Under the pieces are notes generated by a model that worked only from the letters and a program-made list of their open reading frames with translations, was not told the DNA's origin and made no database searches. A stretch of DNA of 64,000 nt, taken from the IMG/VR virus record IMGVR_UViG_3300012582_000004, positions 124,001 to 188,000 of that record; one strand, given 5' to 3'. Below, one piece after another: positions 6,001 to 54,839 of the stretch; position 1 is the first letter of the stretch; every line of letters begins with the position of its first letter. The position numbers and the translations under genes are program-made. This DNA comes from a virus.

Positions 6001-8224
6001 TTAGTTTTTGGTAATTAAATCCTGTTCCTGTATATTGTGCAGGAAACCACGTTTGCGTACCACCAGCGATACCAGTAGTGCTGGCATAATGAAAATTCCC
6101 GTTAACATTAGTTAATGAATTAACTAAAAGTCCAGCAGCAGTATTGCTACTTGCCCATATGGTTGATTGAATCACATCACCACTTTTAACATGACGATTA
6201 ACACCTGGTCCATATTGATCACTACCCAATTTAATAGCATTTGAAGAATTAGGATTTATTGAATAATTTACATGTGTATTATCTATTTTTGATGAATAAT
6301 TATCATTATGAAATAATTCATAATCACCACCATCAAAACTAGTTTTTATGCTTGTAATTAGAGTTGTAATTGGATCTTTTATTTCCCAATCATTTATTTT
6401 TTCTTTACTGAAGAAATTTAATTCATAATCTTTATCTTTTTGCCAACCCAATAAATTAATTAAATTAGTTTCATCTATACAAAATTCTTCTGGTTTACCA
6501 TTTACTAAATATGAAATATGTATAGTAGAACCGTCAATATCTACTCTTAATTTTTTAATATTACCTATAACATTTTTAATTGTATAAGTACTTCCATTAT
6601 AAAACAAATTAACTGATGTGGAATTTATAAAGAAATAGTATTCATTTCCATTATTTAAATATTCAAATTCTATAGCACCATTTAAAGTAATTGGTGTCAT
6701 AAATGATGTGGAATTAAAAATAATACCTTGTATTATAGCATGTGTATAAGAACCAACAATATCATTAGTAAGGAAAATTCCAGATGAACCGCTTAATAAT
6801 TTAAAATCAACTACATTTGATGGTAATGTACTAGCAATATTAAAATAATTATATACTAAACTAGTTCCTTCTGTACCTGCTATTGTAGGTGTTTCAATAT
6901 TATCTTTAAATAAAAAGAAATTGTTATCTTTTTTACCTACCAAATAAATATCACTACCGATATTTTCAATTTTAGAAATAAATTGTGTATTATCATAATA
7001 ATTTTTATATTGAACAAAATTAGTACCATTACTATAGTCTAATGTTCTATAATTAGCATTAACTGAATAGAAATCTGTACCATTTGTACCATAAATATTT
7101 TCAGTAAAATCAAAATTAGTTAATGGTTCATTTTTAGTAAAATAAACCAAATCAGAAAAACTATGATTTTGAAGTAATCTATAACTTAATCTATTTCTTA
7201 CGATATAATTAGTAGACTCTATAAATATTTTAGGTTCGTCAAGAGATGGATATTCGCCATTTTGTTCTCTATCTAAAAAGAACTGTTTTTCTCTATTGAA
7301 AATTCCTTCTTTAACATATACCGAATATAAATAATAATCTTCTATTGTATCGAAAGATATATCTAATGTCAATTTTTGATTTAAATATTCATAAACACCA
7401 TTTTCTGTTGTATTTATCTGGTTTTTAAGCAATATTTTATGTTTAGATACTGCTAATGTACCATCAACATTCAAAATTGGATAAATTTTATTAATATCGA
7501 TATTTTCAGTCGTAGCTAAATCAATTAAAGTGAAATTCTTCAATAATTTAGTTAAAATCTTTTCTGAAGTAAACAAATTTCTTTGGGAATATCCCCACTC
7601 ACCTTCAACCCACGAATCTTGGTAATAATTTTTCCATGAACTTAGTGTATAAGAACTATTAATTAGAATATGATTGAAACTTGTCCCATAAGTACCAAAA
7701 TCCCATGTAACAACAGTTGTAATCGTATTGTCAATGAAGTTAGTGCCTTGTATTAACCCTCCCGAAGATGATGTATTCAATACGGGAGCATTAGTACCAT
7801 TAGTACCATAATAAGTTGTTATAATAGGCTGATAGACGGTAAAAAAGGTATCTGCACCATCTTCTTCAAACAACAAAGAATTAGCAGCTTTGATATATCC
7901 GCTATCCATGTAATTTTTCAAATCTTGTGAATTCAAGATTGTATCATCTGATAAATCTTTAGATAAATTATAATAGAATCCCTTCTTTAATTCTAAACCT
8001 TCTAAAAGGATGATTTCTGGTGCAACATTTGTTAAAGATACCCAAAATGCGTGCTGATATTTCAAAACATTATATACGTCTTCTAATGTATTAGTAACTG
8101 AATATCCAGAAGCATTAATACATTTAGAGTAAGTTTTAAGTTTATCTAAAATATTTACAAAAAAGTCGGTATCACGCAGATTATCCTTTTTAGAATAAGT
8201 ATAGTTCTCTTTATTCCAAAGCAT
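1..8224 (-). CDS. Giant virion protein, partial (C-terminus beyond left edge): LamG-like, beta-propeller-like and MORN-like repeats
   Basis: An uninterrupted minus-strand frame of 2741 codons starts at the ATG at 8224 (MLWNKENYTYSK) and is still open at base 1. I checked the frame at both ends and at about 4200. A LamG/concanavalin-like part lies near residues 820-1030 (YDGINDYSD, then an FxxWDKELNPSQL-type motif). Photosystem-assembly/BNR-like propeller blades lie near 1440-1610 (IWMIGKNGILIKSIDNGISW). The last 200 visible residues are MORN-like repeats of the form GTWYNGTFxxG. Many GTNGT tracts interrupt it. These domains and its size suggest a tail fibre or baseplate-attached adhesin on the virion surface; that role is inferred. 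A phage-type TATATATA element lies 18-31 bases upstream. An opposite reading of the MORN-coding DNA (139-555) is only a shadow frame. Confidence 0.85.
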   Translation of the reverse strand, partial: MLWNKENYTYSKKDNLRDTDFFVNILDKLKTYSKCINASGYSVTNTLEDVYNVLKYQHAFWVSLTNVAPEIILLEGLELKKGFYYNLSKDLSDDTILNSQDLKNYMDSGYIKAANSLLFEEDGADTFFTVYQPIITTYYGTNGTNAPVLNTSSSGGLIQGTNFIDNTITTVVTWDFGTYGTSFNHILINSSYTLSSWKNYYQDSWVEGEWGYSQRNLFTSEKILTKLLKNFTLIDLATTENIDINKIYPILNVDGTLAVSKHKILLKNQINTTENGVYEYLNQKLTLDISFDTIEDYYLYSVYVKEGIFNREKQFFLDREQNGEYPSLDEPKIFIESTNYIVRNRLSYRLLQNHSFSDLVYFTKNEPLTNFDFTENIYGTNGTDFYSVNANYRTLDYSNGTNFVQYKNYYDNTQFISKIENIGSDIYLVGKKDNNFFLFKDNIETPTIAGTEGTSLVYNYFNIASTLPSNVVDFKLLSGSSGIFLTNDIVGSYTHAIIQGIIFNSTSFMTPITLNGAIEFEYLNNGNEYYFFINSTSVNLFYNGSTYTIKNVIGNIKKLRVDIDGSTIHISYLVNGKPEEFCIDETNLINLLGWQKDKDYELNFFSKEKINDWEIKDPITTLITSIKTSFDGGDYELFHNDNYSSKIDNTHVNYSINPNSSNAIKLGSDQYGPGVNRHVKSGDVIQSTIWASSNTAAGLLVNSLTNVNGNFHYASTTGIAGGTQTWFPAQYTGTGFNYQKLTVTVTVPNILYNEDGTPADMSDIYVNTYAWNPPSSPNTWYDDFEVNIYRNSTNLYLKNSRITNLLDGISGSNFNLLVPKISNGDYRTYDGINDYSDMSKVPMSTIINGNGSFTVEFKIKPNGIRNQMPVFYFGEKSKTFTYSFFGFSFSFQLPVLSYMSFILKDGDGFPYLVMSENYTNFIKLKANRVIRENVSLSVAFTWQYTANKATGKLYFKEENEISPVLVGTIVDQKNSFKTPLSIKNLILDTCLIGKSDFKFPNYRGDISQFRIWDKELNPSQLNSRMGKTINPTDVIYSNLKGYWKLDDKNSYHLETISNTTTNNIFFGGLNRDAILPTIQSVSQIQEFSNNLFVLENDSASGTNGIKDVIYRIDLNDEKIYKIYSTSNNIKSIYLENYDLYFLENNKIFKFNTTYSSTNIFHNGTGTIEDFTVVNSLPYLYNSDDNIYNNGSNSTSSLFNNNIAQIKTIYGKSQGTISDISNYLLNIYLLDINGNIHLLSDEYLNTTSGLQTLDYIGTYPLKSNKYLVNGTNSFIIDGLNIYRDNLNLDLNNSLWTKNLKTIHGIYNRQNKVLILVSTIYDEIQLWQYNNTTGASKRFIDNKGNATMLKLAYNVDLTYHTVNNEEFITILNPLNKSITWFKLQRDNKFSWTCLPWTKKWTSNKTPIAIDSFTGSDANTKISILSQSGSNKLYLSSMKNTSDDYNLWEDCLTYEQDTDGLIIGDSGILFKDNSSTSWSIELQNLLYKNDFSDIEVFIEDSLRDKGYVVPSWSGVIWMIGKNGILIKSIDNGISWAVQETGVSQNLNSISFFGNKNGLLSGDSGVILATFTGGESFESIVLPEEIKNRDWQKVLIYSSNSAILLGNGGTLVHLTRKDFIWSVDKILNKLELNTIDKQILDSDLNNSIHLDMKTSMDADQYQQTLNDVKYLGDNKFLICGDRDLLLQLELVTKLNYKEPTLNFFKTNNLTDWREIKPYINFETNEKRAFILSNKNIYSFEYDRIVVDTNSNIHDIEIDLFFTNDSPLNKIDINNNYLFTVGDRVNAIRKSLFKVDSSTSGYGDLLYYVEDNSAFEEQNLNKIFQPKLLFLDYYLGRKINLHLEEGGFEVPKTYFPKSLLACYYFLPDDYIEFTDYGTVNNQNNFLAFQDYFYLNRRVLDGGLDKFAKIEPWIKYNKRISAASTSGYLDNYLWNGEFNEGLFTESTSGTNFLTNTINGTNFFRIVNDLVNSTSGETFVSGSYNGSALHERSYSTKIQLDSFTFATTQGDVIKLTLTKSDKSLSIQNGYDIQLNINTPYNEFNMDSHVKINDIGFLKVGYLNINTNSLSTRNVLTLIDYIKNVVLLTINNYEAENVLPTSTLNDIQVECGILILSDNFIVRDYNVVNQTITLWTLFEQDIIEDARYGSKLLLKNLNYFNGNLLHLEEVFSEHLLAQSYILDVNKSDNIYVEGFVNDLTKYYNLESYLKVGINGSETIYPIAYSEDVVYGPKYDLISFLNNINPIFDENYSFNLPSHNFTYNNLLRNNLNEFKEFTIVGNKIYIGNDLIDALNFVPGTFIDIVRGAKSVRRTYLSKIEIISYSKYPDKKRYVLHFNYELENKLHDSSTTVSLRTRNTLKEISQDLEFTDDLMFPLPNGGTNGVEFFNNSYFNQTKTATAYAPYILNDVNIRNNISAVVYLDNDSDWNINIIDWKTDPNLYYRPVDLHELGIDKIFKKAISVEPKNLGVDSNRLILKNIDIEKYNYRLVDGLTLQQLEKKYYWILNADMRNAIIGENDKGLVWYQGDWLCGIWEDGTWYSGRAFNIEWIKGDFYSYRTINNFNLIEVIPGDDASNSIWYKGLFGSGNFYNGTWYNGTFNKGNRYDGLWYNGQFLDGTWYNGTFMGGEFFGGTWLSGTFSESMFPSIWHYGTWLGGDFENGVWENGIWDQTVRVKSRFGTKASLLHKAIWEYGWWKGGEFHSGLTIDVNGKTIASINYANSTWYNGVWDKGDFYGGIWKMGRFNNGVWYN

Positions 8225-8241
8225 CAAAATTTGATATTTTG

Positions 8242-15671: not shown

Positions 15672-18600
15672 TTATTTCCTCCTTTTATTGAATAATGATT
15701 TAATTACATCTGCAAATTTAGATGGTGCTTTAGCAATTGTTTGTATAATTTTAGTTGGTTCTACTATTTTAACATTTCCTATATATTGAACTGCACTAAA
15801 TGCTGATGTTTTTCCTTGTTCTATAACTTTTTGAAGCCATGTTTGACTATGATATTGTGCTGTGGGTAATTTCGTATTAAGTACTAATGTTTGAAGATTA
15901 GTAACTGGTTTACTTTTTTTAGCAAGCATAAATTCATTCTTCTTAAATGTAGGCTTCTGTTCAATTACAATAGATTCTTTTGTGCTTGGTGGTGGTGGTG
16001 TCGATACATAACGCTCATCACTAAATCCTACAATATTGGCATCCGAAACTATCCAATTTAAACTATCTACATTCACTTGTATATCAGAAGCAGGGAAGTA
16101 TGCTGATTCGAAATGGAAGTATGCAACTTCATCTTTTTCATTTTCTTTAAATCCGTCATTTGAAAAAGATGTTTTTATTCTTGCCCATCTTGACATATCA
16201 GCAATCATTTTACCACCCATTAAATCTTTTAAAGTACTTGAACCTTTTCCTTCATCAAATCTATAATATGCAACAAGTGATTTAAGTGGGTCTAAATATG
16301 ATTCTGGTCTCAAAATAAATGTATAGTTAGTATTTATTTGTTCACCACTTCTTACATAATTCCAATATCTTAATTCATCTAAACCACCTTTAAATGTTCT
16401 TCTGCCTAATGCTATTGTACTATCTGTTCCAATGAGTAATGACCAACTATTATTAATATCAACATTTAAATAATAATCCAATGATGTAAAATTATCTTGA
16501 AATTCTCTATAAGCATCGTCTATAGTAATGCCTAATTCTTTTTCTTGTAATTGTTTATCCCAATAATCAAGTTCTCTATAACCTCTTATAGAATCAAGCC
16601 AGTATAACGTTTTATTATCTTGTAAATCGTTTCTTATTTTAGAAGCTAATGTTTGAAAATCAGGGAATTTTGAAATATTTTCTGATTTAGGGTAGAATCT
16701 TTTTCTATTTTCAATAAATAAAGCTACTAATTCTTTTTCTGATGGTTTTGTATAACTTTCGGATAAGAAATCATTAATTTTAGCATCTAAAGAACCATCG
16801 ATGTAAATACTTTTTAATGATGTGAATGTATCCACTACACACGCTACATGATGCCATGCACCATCACTAATATCTGTTGTAGATATTAAATTATGTTTTT
16901 CATATTGACCATTTAATTTTCTATGACATGTTCTAAATGCTAATTTATCATCTTTTCCATTTTTACCAATAATAAAAGTGAAATTATTAAATGTATTATT
17001 AGTCCATGGATCATCGGATGTATCCTCACCTTTATATAAAATAGTTTCGTAATCTTTTGTCCAACCATCAATTCTAACCCAAAATTCAATTGTAATGTCA
17101 GCCATATATCCAGTTGTTCTTATATCAGCGTTTTTAAGTGAAGTTTTATTATGTTTTTCACTTATAGTACTTTCGATATTAGCTATAACAGGAATTCCAA
17201 CTGTTGATAAATGGCTACTTTTAATTTCAATTATGAAGTTATAATATGATCCTGGATTTCTTGATATAATTTTAAATGATTTAAAGTTTCCTTTAAAAAT
17301 ATTTCCAAATATAGGAGAAGATGTATCAACTTCTATAGCTTCATAATTAGGTGTAATTACATTATTAATTAATCCTATAATCTGTGTCATATCTAATGCA
17401 CTATTATCATCGGGGTGTCTCGAATTTACAATAACTGAAATTTTATCACCATTGTCTGGAACAATATTAAATTCTATTGTTTCATTTATAGATTTACTAT
17501 TAATTAAACTTTCGTGTATATTTGAAATAAGTTGTTGAGGTGATGGAATAGGTATTGGTTGGAAATTTAAACCAGGTACAAATAATACTTTACCTAATGG
17601 TTGTATATGGGTAGGATTAGTTAACAACTTATTCTTAGCATTTTCTGCTGCTATTTTAGCTTCTAAATCAGTTAATGCTTTTATATCACTAGGTCTCTTA
17701 AAGAACGGATCTCTTCTTAGTTGTTCTTTTAATTGTCTTTCCTTTTCTAATAACTGTAGAATATTACTTTGTGGTGGTATAAATGGTTTTGGTTCAAAGA
17801 AATATTTCTGTTTAATTTTTGTATTAATAACACCTGGTATGAAAGGTAATTTAACTCTTTGTGATATATTTTTAAATAATCCATTTTTTCTTCTATTAAT
17901 TTCAGGTTCGAAAGCATGTAATTTTATAGTATTTATATAAGTTTTAGGACTTTTAATATTAGTAAACCACTTCAATGTCCATTCAGGATTTAAATTAGAA
18001 TCTCCTAAATTTATTGTTTGTCCAACATATACAATAGAATTCCCATCTAAAATATTTGTCCATCTTTCTGGTTCAAATGAGAATGGTTCAGTGTGTGAAA
18101 TTCTTAAATAAGGACCAGTTTTATTTGTTAAATAAGTTCCATTACTACCAGCATCAACAATAAAACCTCTTGATAATAAATCAGAAGTTGTTTTAGTAAT
18201 ACCACCTATTATAGCCGAAGAAGATTTTATATTACTAACTAATGTTGGGAATGTTGAATATTTTTCTCTTCCTATCAGACGGAATGGGAATGTATGTACA
18301 TCACCAACTTCAGTATCTTTTTTAATATAACCACCCCATGTTCCGATTAAATCATTTTCATAAATTATTCCACCAGTACCATTTGTTGCACCCACATTAA
18401 TGTCTAAGAAATTATCAACAACAGAACTCAATTGTAATTTCATAGGATAAATATCTATAGTCCCTGTACCATTTACTAATTTGAAATTTATTTTAGCATT
18501 TATTATATTACCATATACATAATAATTTTCTAAATTCGAGCCTGATGACCCATTATATGATAATAAATTATTACCACTATATGTAAGTGTTGGTGTATAT

Positions 18601-21600
18601 TTATATGTTTTAAATGAATTTGTAGTTGATGTACCATTAGGTGTAATTGTTTGATAATTAGCAGCCAAAATATATTTAGTACTAGATTGATTAACATCTT
18701 GTGGATCATTTATTAATTCAATCCATACATTCAGTGCTGTTGCTGAACCAACTTTATTAAAGAAATCTAATGTTAATGTATAATCTTGATTAGCTAATAA
18801 TTTAACATTAATTGATTTAATATCAGATGATGGAACACCGATTATAGTTTGTCTAAAAAAGCTTCTTTCACCTTCTGGTTCATTTAAAATGAAATTTTCA
18901 TAATTTAGATTATCTGTGTAATGTCTTTCTAAATTAAATTTAGGCGCATCTTGAATTCTTAAATAATCTTTTATACCATCATAAAGAACTGTATAGCCAG
19001 CAATACCAGGATATACATTAGATTCAACTTCAACTTTTCTTGATTGGTAATAGAAGCCTGGTTCCCAGTTAGAAGAAAATAAATATCTTGAGTCAAATTC
19101 ATAACCATATTCATCAACCATCGGATAAATACTTTTTCCGTTACCGCTATCTATTTTAAGAATATTACTTTCAGTATTACATTTAGAAAAAATCAATTCA
19201 TTAATAGAACCAAAATTAACTACATTTGGAGATTCTGTTGAACTTGATGGATCATAGAATTTCCAATTACCACTTTCTTTAATACTTGGTACACCATTAG
19301 TTAATTTCGTTAATTCGATATAACCCATCGGTCTAAATAATGGAACTGTTCTAAATATAGGAACATAAGGACCTGAATATCTAAATACTGATGGATCTAA
19401 ATCATTATCCAATTCCCATGTTTGTCTATTATCTTTACCATCCACAATTTCTTTAGCAATAGGATAATAGTTATATGAGTTTACATCCAATAAACTTCCC
19501 ACTCTGAATCCATCGGATGTAAAATTCACATTATTAGTAGGACTATCGGTATCGTCGTCTAATACAATTCTATTTTTAAATGTATTATTTATATCTATGT
19601 CAACATTAATGGGATTTACACTAAATGCATTTTGCTTTATAATTGTTTCTTCTGGTAATTTATACTTAATTATAACATCTGTTGTTTCGTATGTCATTGG
19701 ATTTGAAATTGTGCCATCGTTATAAATATGAATATATTTTGTATCGTCTTTACCTTCTGGTGGATTATAGTTAAAATTATTTAAATTAAATAAAAATGTT
19801 TGTAGCATAAAATCACGAGGTCTTGATACAACAGAACTATTTACCTTAAATCCAGTATTATCCCATTTAATAGGACTTACTTCTTCTCTTTCTATGTTAT
19901 CATTATACCAAACATCTATTTCACATGTTTCAGCGTTTATAGCAGTACCGCTCGTTCCATCAGTTAATTGACTAATTTGAATAGTTTCTTCAGTGTCAAC
20001 ATAAAGATGTATCAGAACATTTTTCCAATAATCATTTACATAAATATCAACTCCACTATTATTATTACCACTACCATTTAGCTTTCTTCCAAAAACTATA
20101 GCGAATTTATAATCTTCATAATTTATATTCACTTTAGTTATAATATCATCAATGAGTGTTGAATTACTTTCCTCATCACTAAATTTAATTTTATCTACAT
20201 CGAATATTGTATACTTAACACCTCTAAATATTGTATAAGGATCATTAAATTCATTTGCTGATATAAATGTTGAATATTTAGTTGTTAGTTCTAAACCATC
20301 AATTGTTTCTTGATCTGATTTGAATATGTATTCGAAATAATCGTAATCAGTTGAAACGTATTTTGATAAATCGAAAAAAGGTTCTTTTAAATGTAAAGAA
20401 TAAAATTTATAATCTTTAGCATTATTTAAACCAAAACGATAAAAATAATCTAAATCTAAATTACTTCTTATAGGAAAATTATTTCCAGTAAATATACTGG
20501 GTTCTCTATTAAAGATACCAGCCATATCTAAACTATAATTCAATCTATATGGATAGTCATGTAAACCTTGACTATTTAAAAATCCCCATTTACATATTGA
20601 TTGATTTTTTCTCCAAATTTCTGTCAGATCATTTTGATTTATTTCCCATAATTCATCAGAAGAAATATATTCAGAAGAAACTGGAATATAATTAGTATCA
20701 ACCGATTTATTAGGATCTTGTTTAGATTTAATTAATGAAGATTTAATTTTAGCGTCACTTATTTCTCCTTTACCATCTAATCCCCAAGTAAGAACATCTT
20801 CTAAATTTGCTGGATCTGAATTTGATTTAAAATCGAATTCGTAAGTTTTCAAGTTATCATCAACTCTCCAAACATATTGTTCTTCTCTATAATATCTTCT
20901 TTTTAATGATACTTGTCTATCTGTAACACCACCCCAATTAGTACCATCAATAGTTCCAGAAAATAATGACCAACTCGAATCATACTCTCTTCTAAATAAT
21001 TCAAAATCCTCATATGGTTTTTGTGTAAATGGATTTATTTCACCTATTTGATCTCTTATGGTATATGGTCTATTATTTAAATCTGTGATAGGAATTCTTC
21101 TCGCTCTGTCATTAGTACCAATTAAAGAACGAACTTTTACTATAATATCTCTATATTCTGTTGCATATAATTTAGGTTCTAATGAATTATTTAATTCAAA
21201 CTTCTTTTCATATTCAAAATTAGCATAATCAGTTTCAACTCTATCAAAATCAAAATCTTTTATGTCTGTGAAATTTATTCTTAAAATATCAAAATATGGG
21301 GGTATTGAATCGGATTTAGTTGATTCTATATTTACTCTTTTGTAATAAGCAGGATTTTTATTTATATAACCATTATTTATCCAAGATACAATATCTCTAT
21401 CATTAACATTTATTGACCAGTCTGTTTGTATGTAATATTTACCTTTTAAATTTGGATTTGTATTTGGGTATTGTTTAACAACATGATAATTATTATCAAT
21501 ATTAATTAAAAATAAGTCAGCATTATTAAAGTTGGGAATTGTGAAATCATTTGAAAAACTTAACGTATTTATTCTAAATAATAATGTAGGAATTCCATCA

Positions 21601-23048
21601 ACTAAAACAGTATCAAATAATCTTTGATATGATGTAAATAATGGATTTACACTTTGAATAATATTAGTTCCTAAAGTATTATTAATTTTTTGTGAATTTA
21701 CTACTATTTTATGTTTACCTGTTGTAAGTTCATTTATTAAAATTTTCTTAAATTGTGATAATGTTTTATCATCTATTGTATTTGTTGTAAAGAATTCATT
21801 ATTTTCATCTGACATTAATTCGCCGTCAACAATTCTTTGAACGATTGTAGAAGTTGTAGTTTTGGTAATTTTTAATTTATGTTCAATGATAATATCAGAT
21901 ACCACTCTATAAATGAAATCACCTATAATACCATCAAGTTTAAAAACATCCTTATCTGGATTTTCAATTCTTTCAATTCTATAAAATTTACCTTTCCATT
22001 CTACCCAATAAGTAAGAGTATCTTTCCATCCTTTTTTAATAGGATTAAATGAATATAATCTACCTTTAGCTTCTCTTACAAATTTATTATCTTTCAAAAA
22101 TGGTATTTCACTAACTTCAATGGCTGATAAATCTTTAAGAGTCTCTTCAGTAACTTTACTTAATTCTGATGCTTGATATGGTGATACTGTTTTAACAGTT
22201 GGTTTATCATCTACATAAAATCCAATATAGCGATTTATCGACCACTTTCTTAAAGATGTAGGTGTAGCAGGAGTATCATCGAATAAAAATTTCATATTAA
22301 TTATGTGTGGATATACTAAATTATTGTCCTGCCATAACTGTGTGAAATATTCTTCTGTCTTGAATATTGGTGTGTTTTTACTTTGAACATCTTTTAAACT
22401 TAAATACTTTTTTACCCATCCACCATTAATGGTGTCTATGCCAGAAATTTCTGATAAATCGTCACCATGATTTACAAATAAAGGGAATTTAGGATAATCT
22501 TCATCAGATATAAAATTTCTTTTAATCCACACGCCTAAATCAGTATTCTCAGTTAAATCATACATGGAAACAAATTTCCAATTATCAATAATCTGACTTC
22601 TAAAATTAGATGCATCCGAGTCTTGATTTAATGAACCTGATCCATCAACACGTAATATTATAAAATTCTTAGGTAAAGCATTATTTTTTATGTATAGAGG
22701 AGCTAAATATTCATACTCTTCATTATAATAAGTATCTTCTGTAAAGAAAGCACCCGAATGATAAGTATCATCAAATTGATGTCTATAATCATCATATACT
22801 TCCGATGTATCATTATCAAATTTAACATCAAAAACAGTTTTACTTTCAATATCTTGAAAAAAATATGGTATTACTTCTTTCCAATATTCTTCTTTTTTTA
22901 TTTCAACATGTTGTAGTCTTTGTTGTCCTAAAGTCTTATTAATAGCAAAGCTTTCTAAAAACAATTTGTAATCAGAACTCACTACTAATTTGATGTTACC
23001 TGTTAAAGCTGGATTAGTACGTACTAAAAAGAAGCTCCTATCTATCAT
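15672..23048 (-). CDS. Giant virion protein with C-terminal LamG-like domain (2458 aa)
   Basis: A single ORF of 2458 residues. Most is beta-rich with repeated short aromatic motifs. A LamG/concanavalin-like domain lies near residues 1980-2260: DITIEFWVRIDGW, then DGAWHHVACVVD, GGLDELRYWN and VAYYRFDEGKG are its classical strands. It contains GTSGT and TNGTGG inserts. A proline-rich linker (STPPPPSTKE) and a basic tail follow. LamG domains bind glycans, so a host-surface-binding baseplate or fibre component is likely. It shares LamG architecture with the giant gene at 1-8224, and the two could assemble together. A phage-type promoter precedes it. Confidence 0.88.
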   Translation of the reverse strand: MIDRSFFLVRTNPALTGNIKLVVSSDYKLFLESFAINKTLGQQRLQHVEIKKEEYWKEVIPYFFQDIESKTVFDVKFDNDTSEVYDDYRHQFDDTYHSGAFFTEDTYYNEEYEYLAPLYIKNNALPKNFIILRVDGSGSLNQDSDASNFRSQIIDNWKFVSMYDLTENTDLGVWIKRNFISDEDYPKFPLFVNHGDDLSEISGIDTINGGWVKKYLSLKDVQSKNTPIFKTEEYFTQLWQDNNLVYPHIINMKFLFDDTPATPTSLRKWSINRYIGFYVDDKPTVKTVSPYQASELSKVTEETLKDLSAIEVSEIPFLKDNKFVREAKGRLYSFNPIKKGWKDTLTYWVEWKGKFYRIERIENPDKDVFKLDGIIGDFIYRVVSDIIIEHKLKITKTTTSTIVQRIVDGELMSDENNEFFTTNTIDDKTLSQFKKILINELTTGKHKIVVNSQKINNTLGTNIIQSVNPLFTSYQRLFDTVLVDGIPTLLFRINTLSFSNDFTIPNFNNADLFLINIDNNYHVVKQYPNTNPNLKGKYYIQTDWSINVNDRDIVSWINNGYINKNPAYYKRVNIESTKSDSIPPYFDILRINFTDIKDFDFDRVETDYANFEYEKKFELNNSLEPKLYATEYRDIIVKVRSLIGTNDRARRIPITDLNNRPYTIRDQIGEINPFTQKPYEDFELFRREYDSSWSLFSGTIDGTNWGGVTDRQVSLKRRYYREEQYVWRVDDNLKTYEFDFKSNSDPANLEDVLTWGLDGKGEISDAKIKSSLIKSKQDPNKSVDTNYIPVSSEYISSDELWEINQNDLTEIWRKNQSICKWGFLNSQGLHDYPYRLNYSLDMAGIFNREPSIFTGNNFPIRSNLDLDYFYRFGLNNAKDYKFYSLHLKEPFFDLSKYVSTDYDYFEYIFKSDQETIDGLELTTKYSTFISANEFNDPYTIFRGVKYTIFDVDKIKFSDEESNSTLIDDIITKVNINYEDYKFAIVFGRKLNGSGNNNSGVDIYVNDYWKNVLIHLYVDTEETIQISQLTDGTSGTAINAETCEIDVWYNDNIEREEVSPIKWDNTGFKVNSSVVSRPRDFMLQTFLFNLNNFNYNPPEGKDDTKYIHIYNDGTISNPMTYETTDVIIKYKLPEETIIKQNAFSVNPINVDIDINNTFKNRIVLDDDTDSPTNNVNFTSDGFRVGSLLDVNSYNYYPIAKEIVDGKDNRQTWELDNDLDPSVFRYSGPYVPIFRTVPLFRPMGYIELTKLTNGVPSIKESGNWKFYDPSSSTESPNVVNFGSINELIFSKCNTESNILKIDSGNGKSIYPMVDEYGYEFDSRYLFSSNWEPGFYYQSRKVEVESNVYPGIAGYTVLYDGIKDYLRIQDAPKFNLERHYTDNLNYENFILNEPEGERSFFRQTIIGVPSSDIKSINVKLLANQDYTLTLDFFNKVGSATALNVWIELINDPQDVNQSSTKYILAANYQTITPNGTSTTNSFKTYKYTPTLTYSGNNLLSYNGSSGSNLENYYVYGNIINAKINFKLVNGTGTIDIYPMKLQLSSVVDNFLDINVGATNGTGGIIYENDLIGTWGGYIKKDTEVGDVHTFPFRLIGREKYSTFPTLVSNIKSSSAIIGGITKTTSDLLSRGFIVDAGSNGTYLTNKTGPYLRISHTEPFSFEPERWTNILDGNSIVYVGQTINLGDSNLNPEWTLKWFTNIKSPKTYINTIKLHAFEPEINRRKNGLFKNISQRVKLPFIPGVINTKIKQKYFFEPKPFIPPQSNILQLLEKERQLKEQLRRDPFFKRPSDIKALTDLEAKIAAENAKNKLLTNPTHIQPLGKVLFVPGLNFQPIPIPSPQQLISNIHESLINSKSINETIEFNIVPDNGDKISVIVNSRHPDDNSALDMTQIIGLINNVITPNYEAIEVDTSSPIFGNIFKGNFKSFKIISRNPGSYYNFIIEIKSSHLSTVGIPVIANIESTISEKHNKTSLKNADIRTTGYMADITIEFWVRIDGWTKDYETILYKGEDTSDDPWTNNTFNNFTFIIGKNGKDDKLAFRTCHRKLNGQYEKHNLISTTDISDGAWHHVACVVDTFTSLKSIYIDGSLDAKINDFLSESYTKPSEKELVALFIENRKRFYPKSENISKFPDFQTLASKIRNDLQDNKTLYWLDSIRGYRELDYWDKQLQEKELGITIDDAYREFQDNFTSLDYYLNVDINNSWSLLIGTDSTIALGRRTFKGGLDELRYWNYVRSGEQINTNYTFILRPESYLDPLKSLVAYYRFDEGKGSSTLKDLMGGKMIADMSRWARIKTSFSNDGFKENEKDEVAYFHFESAYFPASDIQVNVDSLNWIVSDANIVGFSDERYVSTPPPPSTKESIVIEQKPTFKKNEFMLAKKSKPVTNLQTLVLNTKLPTAQYHSQTWLQKVIEQGKTSAFSAVQYIGNVKIVEPTKIIQTIAKAPSKFADVIKSLFNKRRK

Positions 23049-32097: not shown

Positions 32098-34044
32098 TCA
32101 AGCTTCTTTCTCTTCTTTCAATCCTACAGATATTGCATCATTTTCTATATTAATAACAAGTGTAGAATCATTTTCAGGAGCGTTTACAAGTAAGAATTCA
32201 CAAAGAGCATCGGTAATTTCATTCTGAATAGTTCTTTTTAAGAATCTTGCACCATATTCTTCACTATATCCCTTATCAACCAAATATGTTTTAGCCTTTT
32301 TAGTGATTTTAAGATTATATCCTCTATTATCTTTAAGCATTTTTCTAACGCTATCAATCTCAATCTCCATAATTTCAGCCATCTGATCTTTTTTCAATTG
32401 TTCGAATACTATTATATCATCAATCCTATTCCATATTTCTGGGGTAAAGAATTTCTTAGCAGTTTCGATACTTTTATCACGAAGTTTATTATCGTCTTTA
32501 GCAAATCCAACAGATTTAATAGCAGTTTCTCTTGCACCAAGATTAGAAGTCATAATGACAATACAATTTCTAAAGTTAATTTTTTTACCACTACCATCCG
32601 TCAATTCACCAACATCTAACATTTGAAGAAGAGTGTTTAATACTTCTGGATTTGCTTTTTCTACTTCATCTAATAAAACTAAACTATACGGATTCCTTCT
32701 TAATTGTTCAAACTTACCACCTTTATCATGCCCAACATATCCTGGAGGCGCACCAATTAAAGCTGATGAACTAATCTTTTCCATGAATTCTGACATATCA
32801 AGTCTTAACAATGCACCGTTATACCAAGATTCTGCTAAAACTTTTGCAAGTTCTGTTTTACCCGTGCCTGTCATACCAAGGAACAAAAAACTAGCAACGG
32901 GTTTGTTTGGTGAGTTAATCCCAAGAACACTCCTTCTTAATGCCTTAACGATTTTATCTTTTGCTTCTTGTTGACCAATGATACGTTCATCAAAATTTTT
33001 AATAAGTGTTTTTATTTTATCACCACCATTAAGTGTCATATCATCAAGAGGGATTTTTGATTGTAAAGATATAACTTTAAGAATATCCTCTCTATTAATA
33101 ACTCTTTTATTCTCCTCTCTTTTGGTTTCCCATTTATTAATTTCTTTAGTTAAAGATGTTTGAGTCTTTTTAATAGACTTCTTTAATAGCATAATATCTT
33201 GCCATCTCTCTTCTACTATTATAGATTTCTTTTCTTCATTTAAATCAGCAAGTTCTTGTTCAAGTTTTGATACTTTATCAGGGAAAGACATTGATTCTAT
33301 ATTAGCTTTTGCACCAGCTTCATCAACTAAGTCTATAGCTGAATCTGGTAAATGTCTGTCAGGTAAAAATCTTTTTGCAAGAAATGGAATTTCGGCTAAA
33401 ACATCGTCGGGATAAACAACAGAATGATATTGTTCATAGCTTTCTTTACAATTTTGTAAAATTTTTACAGTTGTTTCGGGTGTTGGATCTTCGACGCTAA
33501 GTTTTTGAAATCTTCTCGCCATTGCACCATCCTTTTCAAAATATTTTTTACATTCATCGTGTGTAGTAGCACCTATACATTGAATAGTACCATTACTCAA
33601 ATGTGGTTTGAGTATATTTGCAATATTCATTGAGTTATTACTACTGCTATCCATAATAATATGAATTTCATCAATGAATAGAATTATTTGTTTATTTTTA
33701 GCACAATAATCAGAAATAGATTTTAATCTCTCTTCCATCTGTCCTCTATATTGAGTACCAGCCATTATTGATCCAATATCTAAACTAAAAATTATTTTAT
33801 CTTGTAAGACGTGTGGCACATCTTTGGATGCAATACGTTGTGCTATAAGCTCAACCATTGCTGTTTTACCAGAACCAGGATTTCCTATAAAAAGCAAATT
33901 ATTCTTTTTTCTTCTGCTTAAAATTTGAACAGAGCGTTCGATTTCTTCTTCTCTACCATACACTTTATCTAGTTTACCAGCCTTAGCTTTCTCAGTTAAA
34001 TTAACACCGTAATTCAATAGAGGATTTTCTATAGTTTTCTCCAT
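32098..34044 (-). CDS. ClpC/ClpA-like AAA+ unfoldase lacking the N-domain
   Basis: 648 residues with two AAA+ modules. D1: Walker A GNPGSGKT at 54-61, Walker B ILFIDEIH. D2: Walker A GMTGTGKT near 392, Walker B LVLLDEVEKA, sensor TSNLGA, and a C-terminal GARFLKR arginine. A short middle coiled-coil lies between them, as in ClpC rather than ClpB. Near residue 510 the D2 loop reads KSVGFAKDDN, aligning with the ClpP-binding loops of ClpA (SIGL) and ClpC (VGF); ClpB lacks such a loop. The Clp N-domain is absent: the protein begins at the D1 linker. I infer an ATP-driven unfoldase that can engage host ClpP with altered substrate choice. Confidence 0.9.
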   Translation of the reverse strand: MEKTIENPLLNYGVNLTEKAKAGKLDKVYGREEEIERSVQILSRRKKNNLLFIGNPGSGKTAMVELIAQRIASKDVPHVLQDKIIFSLDIGSIMAGTQYRGQMEERLKSISDYCAKNKQIILFIDEIHIIMDSSSNNSMNIANILKPHLSNGTIQCIGATTHDECKKYFEKDGAMARRFQKLSVEDPTPETTVKILQNCKESYEQYHSVVYPDDVLAEIPFLAKRFLPDRHLPDSAIDLVDEAGAKANIESMSFPDKVSKLEQELADLNEEKKSIIVEERWQDIMLLKKSIKKTQTSLTKEINKWETKREENKRVINREDILKVISLQSKIPLDDMTLNGGDKIKTLIKNFDERIIGQQEAKDKIVKALRRSVLGINSPNKPVASFLFLGMTGTGKTELAKVLAESWYNGALLRLDMSEFMEKISSSALIGAPPGYVGHDKGGKFEQLRRNPYSLVLLDEVEKANPEVLNTLLQMLDVGELTDGSGKKINFRNCIVIMTSNLGARETAIKSVGFAKDDNKLRDKSIETAKKFFTPEIWNRIDDIIVFEQLKKDQMAEIMEIEIDSVRKMLKDNRGYNLKITKKAKTYLVDKGYSEEYGARFLKRTIQNEITDALCEFLLVNAPENDSTLVINIENDAISVGLKEEKEA

Positions 34045-34124
34045 AATTACTTTATATATGTAAATAAAACCGTTTAGTTTTGTTTTTTCTAACTTTTTTT
34101 AGAAAAAATATAATATATAGTTAT

Positions 34125-34316
34125 ATGAAATGTGCTAAATGTAAATCTGAAAATTTAACCTTTATGGTCCCTGTATATCTCGAAATGCCCATAAAACATT
34201 ATAGGAGAATCACTAAGCTCACTCTTAGAGAAAAGTCTACAAAAATTATGGGTGCTAATTGGGAGAATGAAACTATAAGGTGTTTAGATTGTGGGAATAT
34301 AGAAAAAATGAAATAA
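34125..34316 (+). CDS. Small zinc-ribbon protein (63 aa)
   Basis: From the ATG at 34125 (MKCAKCKSENLTF); the in-frame extension to 34080 is not needed. Two CxxC pairs, CAKC near the N-terminus and CLDC near the C-terminus, form a typical treble-clef/zinc-ribbon. A TAATATATAG element ends only four bases before the ATG, so the transcript may be nearly leaderless. A DNA- or RNA-binding adaptor is likely; the target is unknown. Confidence 0.7.
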   Translation: MKCAKCKSENLTFMVPVYLEMPIKHYRRITKLTLREKSTKIMGANWENETIRCLDCGNIEKMK

Positions 34317-34325
34317 TTATTATTA

Positions 34326-35246
34326 TTATTTAATATTAAACCATCTTTCGCAATCAATAGCAGCTTTACAACCATCACCCGATGCAGTTATAGCTTGTCT
34401 ATAATAATTATCTCCGACATCACCAGCAATAAAAATACCTGGTATTTCAGACATAGTTCTATGTTTAGGTACTAAATAACCAAAGTCATCTGATGTAATA
34501 ATATCTTTAAGTAGCTCAGAATTAGGTGTATGGCCAATTGCTACAAATAGTGCATCTATAATTAAACGTCTTTTACTAATACCGTCTTTAGTAGGGAGTA
34601 AGTATATACCACCTAAATTATTATTTAGTATTGCAAAACTACAGATTTGATAATCAGTTAAGAATTCTATATTACTAATTGTTTTACACCTATCTACCAT
34701 AATTTTAGATGCTTTAAAATTATCTGATCGGTGTATGATATAAACTTTATTAGCAATATTACTTAAATACGATGCTTCTTCCATTGCGGTATCACCACCA
34801 CCAACTACTGCAACATCTTTCCCTTTATAAAAAAATCCATCGCATGTCGCACATGTATGTAAACCATAACCAAGTAATTCTTTCTCACCTTCTATGTTTA
34901 GCATTTTTGGAGTAGATCCAGTTGCTATTATAACAGCATCAAAAGATTCTTCTATTTTATCATAACTAACTATGAATGAATTATTTTCTATTTTTATTGA
35001 TTGAACTATAGTGTGTATTAATTCAGAACCAAATCGTTGTGCTTGCTTCATCATATTAGACATTAATTCACTACCGTTTATTCCGTCAATAAATCCTGGA
35101 AAGTTTTCAATTTCTGTTGTTTGAGTTAATTGACCACCAGCCAATTGTCCTAAGAAATTTTTCACTTTTATATTTGCTCTCGATAAATAAATTGATGCTG
35201 TTAATCCAGCAGGACCAGAACCAATTACTGCTACTTTCTTACTCAT
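34326..35246 (-). CDS. trxB: Thioredoxin reductase
   Basis: 306 residues. FAD-binding GSGPAG at 9-14, the redox-active CATC at 132-135 in HTCATCDGFF, NADPH-binding GGGDTA at 149-154, and the C-terminal FAD motif FIAGDVGD followed by RQAITASGDG. Everything needed to reduce thioredoxin with NADPH is present. Length matches the low-molecular-weight bacterial family. No thioredoxin is seen in the window, so it may serve host thioredoxin (for example for ribonucleotide reduction) or a phage one elsewhere. It is the last gene of a minus-strand run starting with the polymerase fragment. Confidence 0.95.
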   Translation of the reverse strand: MSKKVAVIGSGPAGLTASIYLSRANIKVKNFLGQLAGGQLTQTTEIENFPGFIDGINGSELMSNMMKQAQRFGSELIHTIVQSIKIENNSFIVSYDKIEESFDAVIIATGSTPKMLNIEGEKELLGYGLHTCATCDGFFYKGKDVAVVGGGDTAMEEASYLSNIANKVYIIHRSDNFKASKIMVDRCKTISNIEFLTDYQICSFAILNNNLGGIYLLPTKDGISKRRLIIDALFVAIGHTPNSELLKDIITSDDFGYLVPKHRTMSEIPGIFIAGDVGDNYYRQAITASGDGCKAAIDCERWFNIK

Positions 35247-35592: not shown

Positions 35593-36819
35593 TTAAAATA
35601 ATGATAATGTAAATGTTAACTTAGAATCAAGTTCTGATAGACCTAGAACTACATTGAATCTATTTATAAGTGCTAATATACATTTCTCAAACTGTGTGTC
35701 ATAATCAATCGGTGCATGTAGCATAGCAATTTCTTTTGGGTATTGTCCTGCCATATATGCAAACTCATTACATATAGGATTGCTTGTATAATAATATTTG
35801 ATTTTAGAACCAGATTTAATCAAATTATATTTACTCTTATATTTAGGATTTTGATTCAATAGGTAATTATGTAATGCTGATGCTTTAACACCATGATGTG
35901 CTCCTTTAGCAAGCAGTAAAGAAGTTTGATCATTCAAAACCATTTGACCATATTTATTACATGAAGTACTCATACTAATGTCTTCTATACTAGCAATTTT
36001 AAATTGGCTTTTTAATTCTCTTATAATTTTTACTAAGTCTCTATCGTTATAAGTATTAGGATTTTTAAAATAATATTTTATAATGTCATACACTTTTTGT
36101 CTAGCGAATAATGGAGAACTTGAACGTACTAAGTCAATGCCCTTTGATTGTATATTACTTTCATGTTCAAAGAAAGTACCTTTTTTCTGCCATTCTGGAT
36201 TTGCATCATTTGGTGAACCATCCTCCCATACAGCATTTTTAACATACATTTTTTTCTCTAAGAAAATAATAGATTTACATACTTGCTCCAATTCAAAATC
36301 TTGTACATTCTTAACTTTGTATTTTTGTGCATACAAATCTAATACATTTTTAAAATATCCAGATAATCTATGACTACAAACTGTATGTAGGAACTCTAAT
36401 GGATCACCTTCCCAACCACAGCTTTCCATTGCAGGTTTCATTGTAAAGAAATTTGAATCAGTGTCTACATAAACACAACATTCAACATCAGTAGGAATTG
36501 GTTTCACGTCAGTTACTCCAAGAATTTTATGAAGTTCTGTATCTAAATGCCATTTTTTCTTAAAATAATGATTGCCTGCTCTATCCATGATTTTAATTAA
36601 ATCTCTACCATGTGCAGTAATTGTCGATGCAACTCCGTTACAAAAACAAACAAAATGACGGTTTGCGAACGCACCGTAAGATCCATTAAGTGACAATTTT
36701 AATGCAAGTTGCATAGAATTGAATGAATCTGCTTGTTTTTTTAAGATTTCTATCTGATTTTTCTTTTCTTCAATTAAGACTTTTAATTGCTTTTTTCTTT
36801 CTGCTTTTGTAATTTCCAT
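35593..36819 (-). CDS. DNA polymerase family B, C-terminal half (split gene)
   Basis: 408 residues aligning with the palm and thumb of T4 gp43. Motif B is KLSLNGSYG at 41-49 (T4: KILINSLYG), motif C is VYVDTDS at 116-122, and a KKMY (KKxY-type) motif follows. It ends in a hydrophobic FTLSLF tail that could be a clamp-binding peptide. The exonuclease domain and motif A (DxxSLYP) are missing, and the first 35 residues are a charged helix. It has its own ATG and a phage-type promoter-like element, and the upstream gene is unrelated. I therefore infer a split polymerase whose N-terminal half lies elsewhere, rather than a decayed copy. Confidence 0.85.
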   Translation of the reverse strand: MEITKAERKKQLKVLIEEKKNQIEILKKQADSFNSMQLALKLSLNGSYGAFANRHFVCFCNGVASTITAHGRDLIKIMDRAGNHYFKKKWHLDTELHKILGVTDVKPIPTDVECCVYVDTDSNFFTMKPAMESCGWEGDPLEFLHTVCSHRLSGYFKNVLDLYAQKYKVKNVQDFELEQVCKSIIFLEKKMYVKNAVWEDGSPNDANPEWQKKGTFFEHESNIQSKGIDLVRSSSPLFARQKVYDIIKYYFKNPNTYNDRDLVKIIRELKSQFKIASIEDISMSTSCNKYGQMVLNDQTSLLLAKGAHHGVKASALHNYLLNQNPKYKSKYNLIKSGSKIKYYYTSNPICNEFAYMAGQYPKEIAMLHAPIDYDTQFEKCILALINRFNVVLGLSELDSKLTFTLSLF

Positions 36820-37696: not shown

Positions 37697-38131
37697 ATGG
37701 AATTAAAGAATAGAAAAGCTAGTTTTGATTATCATTTCGAAGATACTGAAATTGCTGGGATTGTGTTAACTGGTTCTGAAATAAAATCATTACGTGAGGG
37801 TAAAGCTAGTTTAGTAGAAGGCTTTATATTCATTGACGATGATAATGAAATGTGGTTGAAAAAAATGTATATTGCACCATACGAAAATGGTGGATATGCA
37901 AACCACGAGCCTGTTAGAGATAGAAAACTTCTAATGACTAAGAAGCAGATTCAAAAATGGGATAAAGAGGTTCAGACATCAAATTTAACTATTATTCCAG
38001 TTAAAGGATTTTTTAATAAGAAAGGTATATTCAAATTAGAAATCGCTCTTGCTAAGGGTAAAAAACAATATAATAAAAAAGAATCTATAAAAGCTAAAGA
38101 TATTAAAAGGGATTTAGATAGAAATTTATAA
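37697..38131 (+). CDS. smpB: SmpB, tmRNA-binding protein
   Basis: 144 residues matching SmpB throughout: NRKASFDYHFEDTEIAGIVL, TGSEIKSLREGKASL, the YENGGYANHEP loop, and a C-terminal KGKKQYNKKESIKAKDIKRD tail that in bacteria enters the ribosomal mRNA channel. SmpB with tmRNA rescues stalled ribosomes and tags nascent chains for ClpXP/ClpAP-type proteases. The length is near the bacterial norm. No tmRNA was recognised in this window, so it would pair with host tmRNA or a phage copy elsewhere. Its presence in a phage is unusual. The stop overlaps the next start (ATAATGG). Confidence 0.93.
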   Translation: MELKNRKASFDYHFEDTEIAGIVLTGSEIKSLREGKASLVEGFIFIDDDNEMWLKKMYIAPYENGGYANHEPVRDRKLLMTKKQIQKWDKEVQTSNLTIIPVKGFFNKKGIFKLEIALAKGKKQYNKKESIKAKDIKRDLDRNL

Positions 38132-53264: not shown

Positions 53265-54839
53265 TTATATCTTAGGTTCAGCGGATAATATATCTTCTGA
53301 TGTATTTTCTCTATATTGATTAAAATTATTTATAAATGATGTAGCTAATTTAGCTAATTGTTCATTATATTCATTTTCACTACTCCATAAATATTTTTGA
53401 TTTAATACTTTAAATGGGACATCCTCACATGATGTTGGATAGCTTAAATTAAATATTGGTAAATTATCAAATTCTATATTATCAAAATCACCATTCAGTG
53501 CAGCGTTAATTAATAATCTTGTATACTTTAATTCAATTCTATTACCAATACCGTATCCACCACCTATCCATCCAGTATTTACTAACCAAACGTTTACTTT
53601 ATGTTCGTGAATTTTTTTACCAAACATTTCGGCATATTTCGATGGGTGTAATGGTAAAAATGCTTTACCAAAACATGCAGAAAATGTTAATTGTGGTTCG
53701 GTAATATTCATCTCAGTACCCGCAACTTTTGATGTATATCCTGAAATAAAATGATACATTGCTTGTTCTGTAGTTAATTTTGAAATTGGTGGTAATACAC
53801 CAGTTGCATCACAAGTCAAAAAGAAAATGTTATTAGGTATATTTCCAATAGATGGTGATATAGCATTATCAATAAATGATAAAGGGTATGATACTCTTGT
53901 ATTTTCTGTTATTGATACATCTGAGAAATTAACTTTATTTGAATTTTCAAAGAATTTAATATTCTCTAATATAGATCCATATTTAATTGCTTTGAATACC
54001 GCTGGTTCTTTTTCTTCGGATAAATTTGCTGTTTTAGCATAACAACCACCTTCAAAGTTAAAAACACTTTTATCTGACCAACCATGTTCATCATCACCAA
54101 TGAGTTTTCTATTTGGAACATTTGAAATTGTAGATTTTCCCGTCCCAGAAAGCCCGTAATATAAAGCAGTATCACCACTCTCCCCAATATTAGCTGAACA
54201 GTGCATGGGTAATACATTGTGTTCATTTGGTAGTATGTAATTTAAAATAGTAAATATACCTTTTTTAATTTCTCCTGTATAACCACTACCACCAATTAAT
54301 AATATTTTTTTACTAAAATTGATGATGGTGAAATTATGCTGTCTTGTACCATCTTTCAGTGGGTTTGCTTTGAATGATGGTACGCATAATATTATCCAAT
54401 CATGTTTAAATGTCTTCAATTCATCTTCGGTAGGCCTTAAAAACATATTGTAAGCAAAAAGATTTGACCAAGGTTTCTCAGTAATTACTTTAATATTAAG
54501 TTTATATTTTTCATCAGCACATACATAGCTATCTCTAATATAAATTTCTTTATGTTTAAGATAGCTAATCATTTTGTTGTAAATTTTGTTGAAGTTATCG
54601 GCTTCAAATTTATTATTTACATCACCCCACCATATAGTATCTTTTGTAATATCATCATAAACAACATATTTATCTTTTGGTGAGCGGCCAGTAAATTCAC
54701 CAGTATCTATTGCTAAACTATCAGTAGAAGTTATAACACCTTCTCCAATACTAACAGTTTTATCAATTAGTTTGGATGGTGATAAATTATAATAAATTTT
54801 GGAATTATTAAGTCCTATGCTTTTTATAAAATTTTTCAT
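53265..54839 (-). CDS. pckA: ATP-dependent phosphoenolpyruvate carboxykinase
   Basis: 524 residues, full length for the bacterial ATP-PEPCK family. Substrate Arg motif TGRSPKDKYVV at 50-60; GGSGYTGEIKKG at 183-194 with the metal-binding lysine; MHCSAN at 212-217 with His213; kinase P-loop GLSGTGKS at 229-236; metal/nucleotide motif GDDEHGW at 248-254; ENTRVSYP with Arg315; and NTGWIGGGYG at 421-430. It converts oxaloacetate plus ATP to PEP, CO2 and ADP, or the reverse. The only substitution noticed in a conserved segment is Asn where many homologues have Lys (GIGNR). Nothing suggests decay, so I infer an active auxiliary metabolic gene. It sits between fibre genes, behind a small unknown gene. 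Confidence 0.95.
   Translation of the reverse strand: MKNFIKSIGLNNSKIYYNLSPSKLIDKTVSIGEGVITSTDSLAIDTGEFTGRSPKDKYVVYDDITKDTIWWGDVNNKFEADNFNKIYNKMISYLKHKEIYIRDSYVCADEKYKLNIKVITEKPWSNLFAYNMFLRPTEDELKTFKHDWIILCVPSFKANPLKDGTRQHNFTIINFSKKILLIGGSGYTGEIKKGIFTILNYILPNEHNVLPMHCSANIGESGDTALYYGLSGTGKSTISNVPNRKLIGDDEHGWSDKSVFNFEGGCYAKTANLSEEKEPAVFKAIKYGSILENIKFFENSNKVNFSDVSITENTRVSYPLSFIDNAISPSIGNIPNNIFFLTCDATGVLPPISKLTTEQAMYHFISGYTSKVAGTEMNITEPQLTFSACFGKAFLPLHPSKYAEMFGKKIHEHKVNVWLVNTGWIGGGYGIGNRIELKYTRLLINAALNGDFDNIEFDNLPIFNLSYPTSCEDVPFKVLNQKYLWSSENEYNEQLAKLATSFINNFNQYRENTSEDILSAEPKI

What the first reader, a model, noticed from the sequence alone, without database searches (positions are those of the whole stretch)
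32098..34044. Phage ClpC-like unfoldase keeps a ClpP-docking VGF loop but has lost the adaptor domain
In D2, KSVGFAKDDN lines up with the ClpA SIGL and ClpC VGF loop known to bind ClpP; ClpB disaggregases lack it. The Clp N-domain, which recruits adaptors and substrates, is missing. So the phage protein may capture host ClpP while ignoring host adaptors and redirect proteolysis.
Basis: partly seen in the sequence, partly recalled or inferred. Interest (0 to 1): 0.72.

Follow-up and report, generated by a model that had tools for sequence, protein, structure and literature searches.

The report
Huge phage's own Clp protease machinery
The gene encodes a stripped-down protein-unfolding motor that keeps its docking peg for the ClpP protease, and the complete 636-kb genome of this phage carries its own ClpP proteases and its own stalled-ribosome tagging system, so the phage probably runs a self-supplied protein-degradation pathway rather than merely hijacking the host's.

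Summary
ORF 32098-34044(-) is a ClpC-type double-ring AAA+ unfoldase (648 aa) that starts just before D1. It has no Clp N-domain, and V512-G513-F514 (window 32503-32511) sits at the ClpC/ClpA ClpP-docking loop. In 80 non-redundant N-domain-less phage relatives the GF is 100% invariant within an otherwise variable loop.

The interpretation needs changing. The window is identical (41.9 kb compared) to LR756504.1, a published, complete, circular 636-kb Mahaphage predicted to infect Bacteroidetes. That genome encodes two intact ClpPs, a divergent third ClpP-like protein, a second N-domain-less unfoldase (ClpX with a VGF loop), SmpB (3.7 kb from the ClpC gene), a tmRNA and a diverged ClpS adaptor. 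Related huge phages share much of this set. The likeliest partner is therefore phage ClpP, although host ClpP cannot be excluded.

Phage tmRNA tags read here are 20-34 residues long, mostly ending in hydrophobic-Ala; three Bacteroidota tmRNAs encode 9-residue tags. N-domain loss should remove docking of ClpS-type adaptors but spare pore-recognised C-terminal degrons. Best reading: an adaptor-insensitive, phage-encoded ClpCP serving phage trans-translation and quality control. Phage Clp sets are known (Atu_ph07), so this is a new variant. Function is inferred from sequence.

The parts
32098..34044 (-). N-domain-less ClpC-type AAA+ unfoldase, 648 aa
   Evidence: fold matches to ClpC-ClpP assemblies; phrog_4871 'ATP-dependent protease' E 3e-207
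32503..32511 (-). V512-G513-F514, the ClpP-docking tripeptide in D2
   Evidence: GF invariant in 80 of 80 non-redundant relatives
32497..32520 (-). flexible loop (residues 509-516) that carries VGF between two D2 helices
   Evidence: AlphaFold model
33295..33963 (-). D1 AAA+ module (about residues 28-250)
   Evidence: Pfam AAA 50-162 and AAA_lid_9 189-282; invariant Walker, arginine-finger columns
33112..33288 (-). short ClpC-type M-domain (about residues 253-311); its key aromatic is W281 here, Tyr in 77 of 80 relatives
   Evidence: two helices 256-278 and 281-311; alignment to ClpC
32170..32904 (-). D2 AAA+ module and small domain (residues 381-625)
   Evidence: Pfam AAA_2 381-544, ClpB_D2-small 550-625
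34045..34325 (.). gap between the ClpC start and the next gene: no room for, and no trace of, an N-domain
   Evidence: in-frame stops upstream; Clp_N absent from the complete genome
37697..38131 (+). SmpB, the protein partner of tmRNA (144 aa)
   Evidence: Pfam SmpB E 2e-50; above both NCBIfam SmpB cut-offs

Best explanation
The protein is an active, N-domain-less ClpC that docks by its VGF loop on a ClpP tetradecamer, mainly the phage's own Bacteroidota-type ClpPs, forming a phage ClpCP protease. With the N-domain gone it should take substrates directly at the pore (unstructured C-terminal degrons such as SsrA tags) and escape N-domain-docking adaptors such as ClpS. The same genome encodes tmRNA and SmpB, so the most natural clients are truncated proteins tagged by the phage tmRNA on stalled ribosomes, along with general quality control during infection. 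Shown by sequence: the loop, the missing domain, ClpP genes, tmRNA, SmpB, ClpX, ClpS. Inferred: complex formation, partner choice, substrates, timing.
For: (1) GF invariant in 80 non-redundant phage relatives; loop between two helices of D2. (2) Window 12101-54044 = LR756504.1 over 41,944 bp with 0 mismatches; Al-Shayeb et al. describe a complete circular 636-kb Mahaphage with predicted Bacteroidetes host (PMC7162821). (3) That genome encodes ClpP1 (259 aa, 55.7% to E. coli ClpP) and ClpP2 (229 aa, 46.9%), triads intact, pocket residues mostly those of Bacteroidota ClpP; both pass NCBIfam ClpP subfamily NF001368 and fall below the head-maturation cut-off. (4) 10 of 11 N-domain-less records of >=200 kb have a ClpP-family gene, 8 of them strongly; the 735-kb phage with a loopless, ClpB-like ATPase has no ClpP. 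(5) A second unfoldase, ClpX (385 aa), also lacks its N-terminal zinc domain and has VGF at the IGF position. (6) tmRNA and SmpB present; neighbours in relatives: tmRNA then smpB in G018, clpP then tmRNA in G033, clpC about 2.3 kb from tmRNA in G037. (7) N-domain-deleted mycobacterial ClpC1 unfolds an SsrA substrate like full length (PMC6274998); E. coli ClpA without N-domain and linker degrades GFP-SsrA more efficiently, and Leptospira ClpA without N-domain keeps ClpP binding and is not inhibited by ClpS (PMC12493166).
Against: No experiment. The ClpP genes are far from clpC, so there is no operon link in this genome. The window ClpC has a very long branch (1.77 changes per column), so divergence of function is possible. 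The 385-kb record G027 has the unfoldase and no detected ClpP, though it may be a fragment. W05 and G023 have only divergent ClpP-like proteins. The tmRNA has an atypical T-arm and ARAGORN misses it. Firmicute ClpC needs MecA for activation; how an N-domain-less ClpC would be activated is unknown.
Confidence: 0.68

Rival explanations
1. One reading: the phage unfoldase docks mainly on host ClpP and redirects host proteolysis; the phage ClpPs serve elsewhere.
For: Pocket residues of phage and Bacteroidota ClpP are nearly the same, so host ClpP should fit; ClpP1 lies beside a tail-sheath gene; G027 has the unfoldase without a detected ClpP.
Against: Two full ClpPs in the complete genome; ClpP-family genes in 10 of 11 large records.
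Confidence: 0.17
2. The phage ClpPs are capsid-maturation proteases of the ClpP fold, and the ClpC works as a ClpP-independent remodelling chaperone (ClpB-like).
For: PHROGs matches of the phage ClpPs are head-maturation proteases; ClpP1 is near a structural gene.
Against: ClpP1 and ClpP2 score 299 and 253 bits on the NCBIfam ClpP subfamily (cut-off 249) and only 88 and 98 on the head-maturation model (cut-off 120); the GF of the docking loop is invariant, which a chaperone without protease would not need.
Confidence: 0.08
3. The fast-evolving window protein is a decayed copy on its way to loss.
For: Very long branch; non-consensus residues in the M-domain.
Against: Intact 648-aa ORF, both ATPase sites, arginine fingers, pore loops and GF kept; identical in three independent records.
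Confidence: 0.05

Closest known systems
ClpC of ClpCP (B. subtilis, S. aureus; M. tuberculosis ClpC1)
   Same: D1, short M-domain, D2 and VGF loop; best sequence and fold match
   Different: no N-domain; about 40-46% identity; long branch; viral genome that also carries ClpP, tmRNA and SmpB
Clp set of jumbo phage Atu_ph07 (PMC6102473)
   Same: one phage genome with ClpX, ClpA-type ATPases, ClpP and ClpS (ClpP and ClpS confirmed)
   Different: its main ClpA-type protein keeps a Clp_N domain; ours, and a whole family in huge phages, lack it, and ours sits with SmpB and tmRNA
SPO1 Gp53, phage adaptor of host ClpC (PMC6873191)
   Same: a phage acts on the ClpCP pathway
   Different: Gp53 changes host ClpC's adaptor use; here the phage supplies unfoldase and protease itself
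N-domain-deleted ClpA/ClpC1 made in the laboratory
   Same: same architecture: D1-D2 with ClpP loop, no N-domain (PMC12493166, PMC6274998)
   Different: natural, recurrent, and long maintained in phages

Membership tests
ClpC (ClpP-partner Hsp100, class I) | two AAA+ modules with intact Walker A/B and arginine fingers | tested here: met
ClpC (ClpP-partner Hsp100, class I) | [VIL]GF ClpP loop in D2 | tested here: met
ClpC (ClpP-partner Hsp100, class I) | short one-wing M-domain between D1 and D2 | tested here: met
ClpC (ClpP-partner Hsp100, class I) | Clp N-domain (adaptor docking) | tested here: not met
   Clp_N absent; hence 'ClpC-derived', not a canonical ClpC
ClpC (ClpP-partner Hsp100, class I) | clusters with ClpC in a tree | tested here: inconclusive
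   inside a Bacteroidota and phage ClpC group (SH-aLRT 98), but on a long branch
ClpB disaggregase | no ClpP loop, long two-wing M-domain | tested here: not met
   loop present; short M-domain
ATP-dependent ClpCP protease complex | a ClpP peptidase with catalytic triad available in the same genome | tested here: met
ATP-dependent ClpCP protease complex | physical and functional ClpC-ClpP complex | not testable with these tools
   needs biochemistry or complex prediction
trans-translation (tmRNA-SmpB) | SmpB gene | tested here: met
trans-translation (tmRNA-SmpB) | tmRNA with tag frame | tested here: met
   Rfam 65.2 bits, gathering 47; open tag frame
trans-translation (tmRNA-SmpB) | canonical tRNA-like domain | tested here: inconclusive
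   acceptor stem with G.U pair read by eye; odd T-arm; ARAGORN finds none

The most novel reading that the evidence does not exclude
Huge Bacteroidota phages run a private tag-and-destroy line: phage tmRNA-SmpB adds a phage-specific tag 2-4 times longer than the 9-residue Bacteroidota tags, N-domain-less phage ClpC and ClpX recognise it directly at their pores and feed phage ClpP, and phage ClpS switches the host's N-domain-bearing unfoldase away from such substrates.
Probability: 0.2. Interest if true: 0.87.

Novelty: new variant of a known kind. Interest (0 to 1): 0.62.

Why it matters
It would show that very large phages replace not only parts of translation but also its quality control: ribosome rescue, tagging and ATP-dependent proteolysis. 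The widespread absence of the adaptor domain beside an invariant ClpP loop is a natural version of the laboratory N-domain deletions, and makes it directly testable whether a virus uses an adaptor-proof protease with its own degradation tag.

Tried and rejected
ClpP search in the window's own 347-kb record gave none; at face value this would have supported host capture, but the record is a fragment of a complete 636-kb genome that has ClpPs outside it. Hidden N-domain upstream or elsewhere: none. ARAGORN tag peptides for L114 and L117 were set aside for the frame aligned to the Rfam resume codon, supported by the shared [G/D]N start in relatives; the W05 tag stays unsure. The ClpS hit was considered as ribosomal L7/L12 (similar fold): only ClpS matches in Pfam, though it is below the NCBIfam ClpS equivalog cut-offs and finds no PDB sequence match. 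Many hits in the 'phages' collection (e.g. Listeria phage LM 4-11-1) look like bacterial contamination and were not used as phage evidence. Number of N-domain losses: the tree needs up to 5 changes and does not rule out 1.

Full report
What is there. The ORF at 32098-34044(-) gives a 648-aa protein with two AAA+ modules. phmmer aligns residues 13-636 with B. subtilis ClpC 167-799, through a short M-domain, and puts VGF of 'KSVGFAKDD' on the ClpC VGF loop. VGF is residues 512-514, window 32503-32511. The protein begins a few residues before D1; stops lie in frame within about 20 codons upstream, and Pfam Clp_N has no match in the complete genome. AlphaFold (mean pLDDT 83) makes 509-516 a low-confidence loop between helices 504-510 and 518-532, and Foldseek's best PDB matches are ClpC-ClpP assemblies. 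A review places the ClpA IGL/F motif in a helix-loop-helix of NBD2 and notes its absence from ClpB and Hsp104 (PMC5540906).

Is the loop more than chance? Two scans of IMG/VR together with the phage records gave 147 distinct viral homologues, 115 of them without N-domain. In 80 of these that are under 90% identical, G513 and F514 are invariant and position 512 is V/I/L/M in 79, while most neighbouring loop columns reach only about 25-70%. ClpB-type homologues lack the motif. This is strong conservation of a ClpP-docking signature across a large family of phage proteins that are only 42-48% identical to the window's.

Which phage? Window 12101-54044 matches LR756504.1 (636,363 bp) over 41,944 bp with no mismatch. 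Al-Shayeb et al. 2020 describe a 636-kb phage genome that is complete, circular and manually curated, in the Mahaphage clade, with a predicted Bacteroidetes host (PMC7162821); the accession itself is not named in the main text, so the identity rests on length and description. The window's own 347-kb record is a fragment, which is why no ClpP is found in it.

The rest of the machine. The complete genome has ClpP1 (370.7-371.4 kb, 259 aa) and ClpP2 (291.8-292.5 kb, 229 aa), 55.7% and 46.9% identical to E. coli ClpP, and a third divergent ClpP-like protein at 146 kb. ClpP1 and ClpP2 keep the Ser-His-Asp triad and most of the pocket residues that receive the loop, in the Bacteroidota version. They pass the NCBIfam ClpP subfamily cut-off and fall short of the head-maturation model. 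A 385-aa ClpX passes the ClpX equivalog cut-offs but lacks the zinc-binding N-domain and carries VGF at the IGF position. SmpB is in the window at 37697-38131. A tmRNA lies at 280.5-280.9 kb (65.2 bits, cut-off 47). So both unfoldases lack the N-terminal recruitment domain and both keep the ClpP peg.

Tags. Reading from the Rfam resume codon, the tmRNA encodes (A)DNVNSFEQSILNELFAPVEMAVAA. Related phages give GNVYNNMEIAGILATSKVAA, GNVYNNMETAGILATSNVAVA, GNVINKLSAVGLIRAEEAVVA, GNTNFWSLVNESVNAPVTEELLAA, GETFAKLQAVGLLRTEEVAVA, DNDLFVSENFFDEAVMVSTRELAVA, GESYIDAEGNIVLNGQPVEFADYELA and a 34-residue tag. Three Bacteroidota tmRNAs read here give GENNYALAA, GESNYALAA and GENNYALAA. The phage tags are long and mostly end in a hydrophobic residue followed by Ala.

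Neighbourhoods and co-occurrence. In G018 tmRNA is followed at once by smpB; in G033 clpP is followed by tmRNA; in G037 the N-domain-less clpC lies about 2.3 kb from tmRNA. Of 11 N-domain-less records of 200 kb or more, 10 have a ClpP-family gene, 8 strongly. The 735-kb phage LR756501 has an N-domain-bearing, loopless ATPase that groups with ClpB, and no ClpP. This is a small sample and large phages often carry ClpP-fold proteins, so I use it as support, not proof.

The ClpS puzzle. The genome also has a 94-aa ClpS-family protein (Pfam 54 bits, cut-off 23; below the NCBIfam equivalog cut-offs) with the Asn-Asp and His pocket positions kept, as do five related records with N-domain-less ClpC. 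Canonical ClpS docks on the N-domain that the phage ClpC lacks, and it shifts ClpAP from SsrA substrates to N-degrons (PMC9663308). It may act on the host's unfoldase, or on the phage ClpC M-domain as in mycobacteria (PMC6274998). This is not settled.

Mechanism. Published N-domain deletions show what to expect: mycobacterial ClpC1 without its N-domain unfolds an SsrA substrate like the full-length protein (PMC6274998); an E. coli ClpA lacking N-domain and linker degrades GFP-SsrA more efficiently, though other truncations are slower; Leptospira ClpA without its N-domain binds ClpP normally and its degradation of SsrA substrate is not affected by ClpS (PMC12493166). I therefore infer an adaptor-insensitive phage ClpCP acting on pore-recognised C-terminal degrons, with tmRNA-tagged proteins as likely clients. 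Complex formation and clients are inferred, not shown.

Origin. The window protein falls inside a group of Bacteroidota and phage ClpCs (SH-aLRT 98) on a very long branch; whether the N-domain was lost once or several times is unresolved.

What is known. Phage Clp sets exist: Atu_ph07 has seven Clp proteins including ClpX, ClpA, ClpP and ClpS (PMC6102473), and tmRNA and SmpB in huge phages were reported (PMC7162821), whose main text does not mention Clp. A lineage of aquatic phages lists ClpA among its common genes (PMC12619734). I found no paper on N-domain-less phage Clp unfoldases in the held library; absence there is weak evidence. Verdict: a new variant of a known kind, with a testable idea of a private phage degradation pathway.

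Noticed in passing
L351 2029-2313(-) (LR756504.1, about 200 kb): ClpS-family adaptor in the same genome whose ClpC lacks the ClpS-binding domain; also in W02, W03, G009, G023, G027.
   Followed up: partly
L224 3588-4745(-) (also G000 about 295.6 kb): Phage ClpX of 385 aa without the zinc-binding domain, with VGF at the IGF loop.
   Followed up: yes
L115 1501-1857(-): tmRNA with an unusual T-arm (stem CUCGA/UCGAG, loop UGUCGUAA), missed by ARAGORN although Rfam scores it above cut-off.
   Followed up: partly
window 53265-54839(-): Phosphoenolpyruvate carboxykinase (PEPCK_ATP, E 6e-213) in a phage.
   Followed up: no
window 35593-36819(-): Part of a family B DNA polymerase as a separate 408-aa ORF; the rest is not adjacent (split gene?).
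   Followed up: no
window 2-8227(-) and 15672-23048(-): Giant ORFs of at least 2,742 aa (open at the window edge) and 2,458 aa; function not examined.
   Followed up: no
L222 6542-9126(-): Nicotinamide phosphoribosyltransferase followed by a Nudix protein: a probable NAD+ salvage pair in the same phage.
   Followed up: no
L222 2046-2121(-): tRNA-like gene with a four-base anticodon call (tcta) close to the tmRNA.
   Followed up: no
L116 1-296(+): GOLLD RNA (253 bits) about 1.2 kb upstream of the tmRNA in phage record G017.
   Followed up: no
window 34326-35246(-): Thioredoxin-reductase-like flavoprotein next to the ClpC gene.
   Followed up: no
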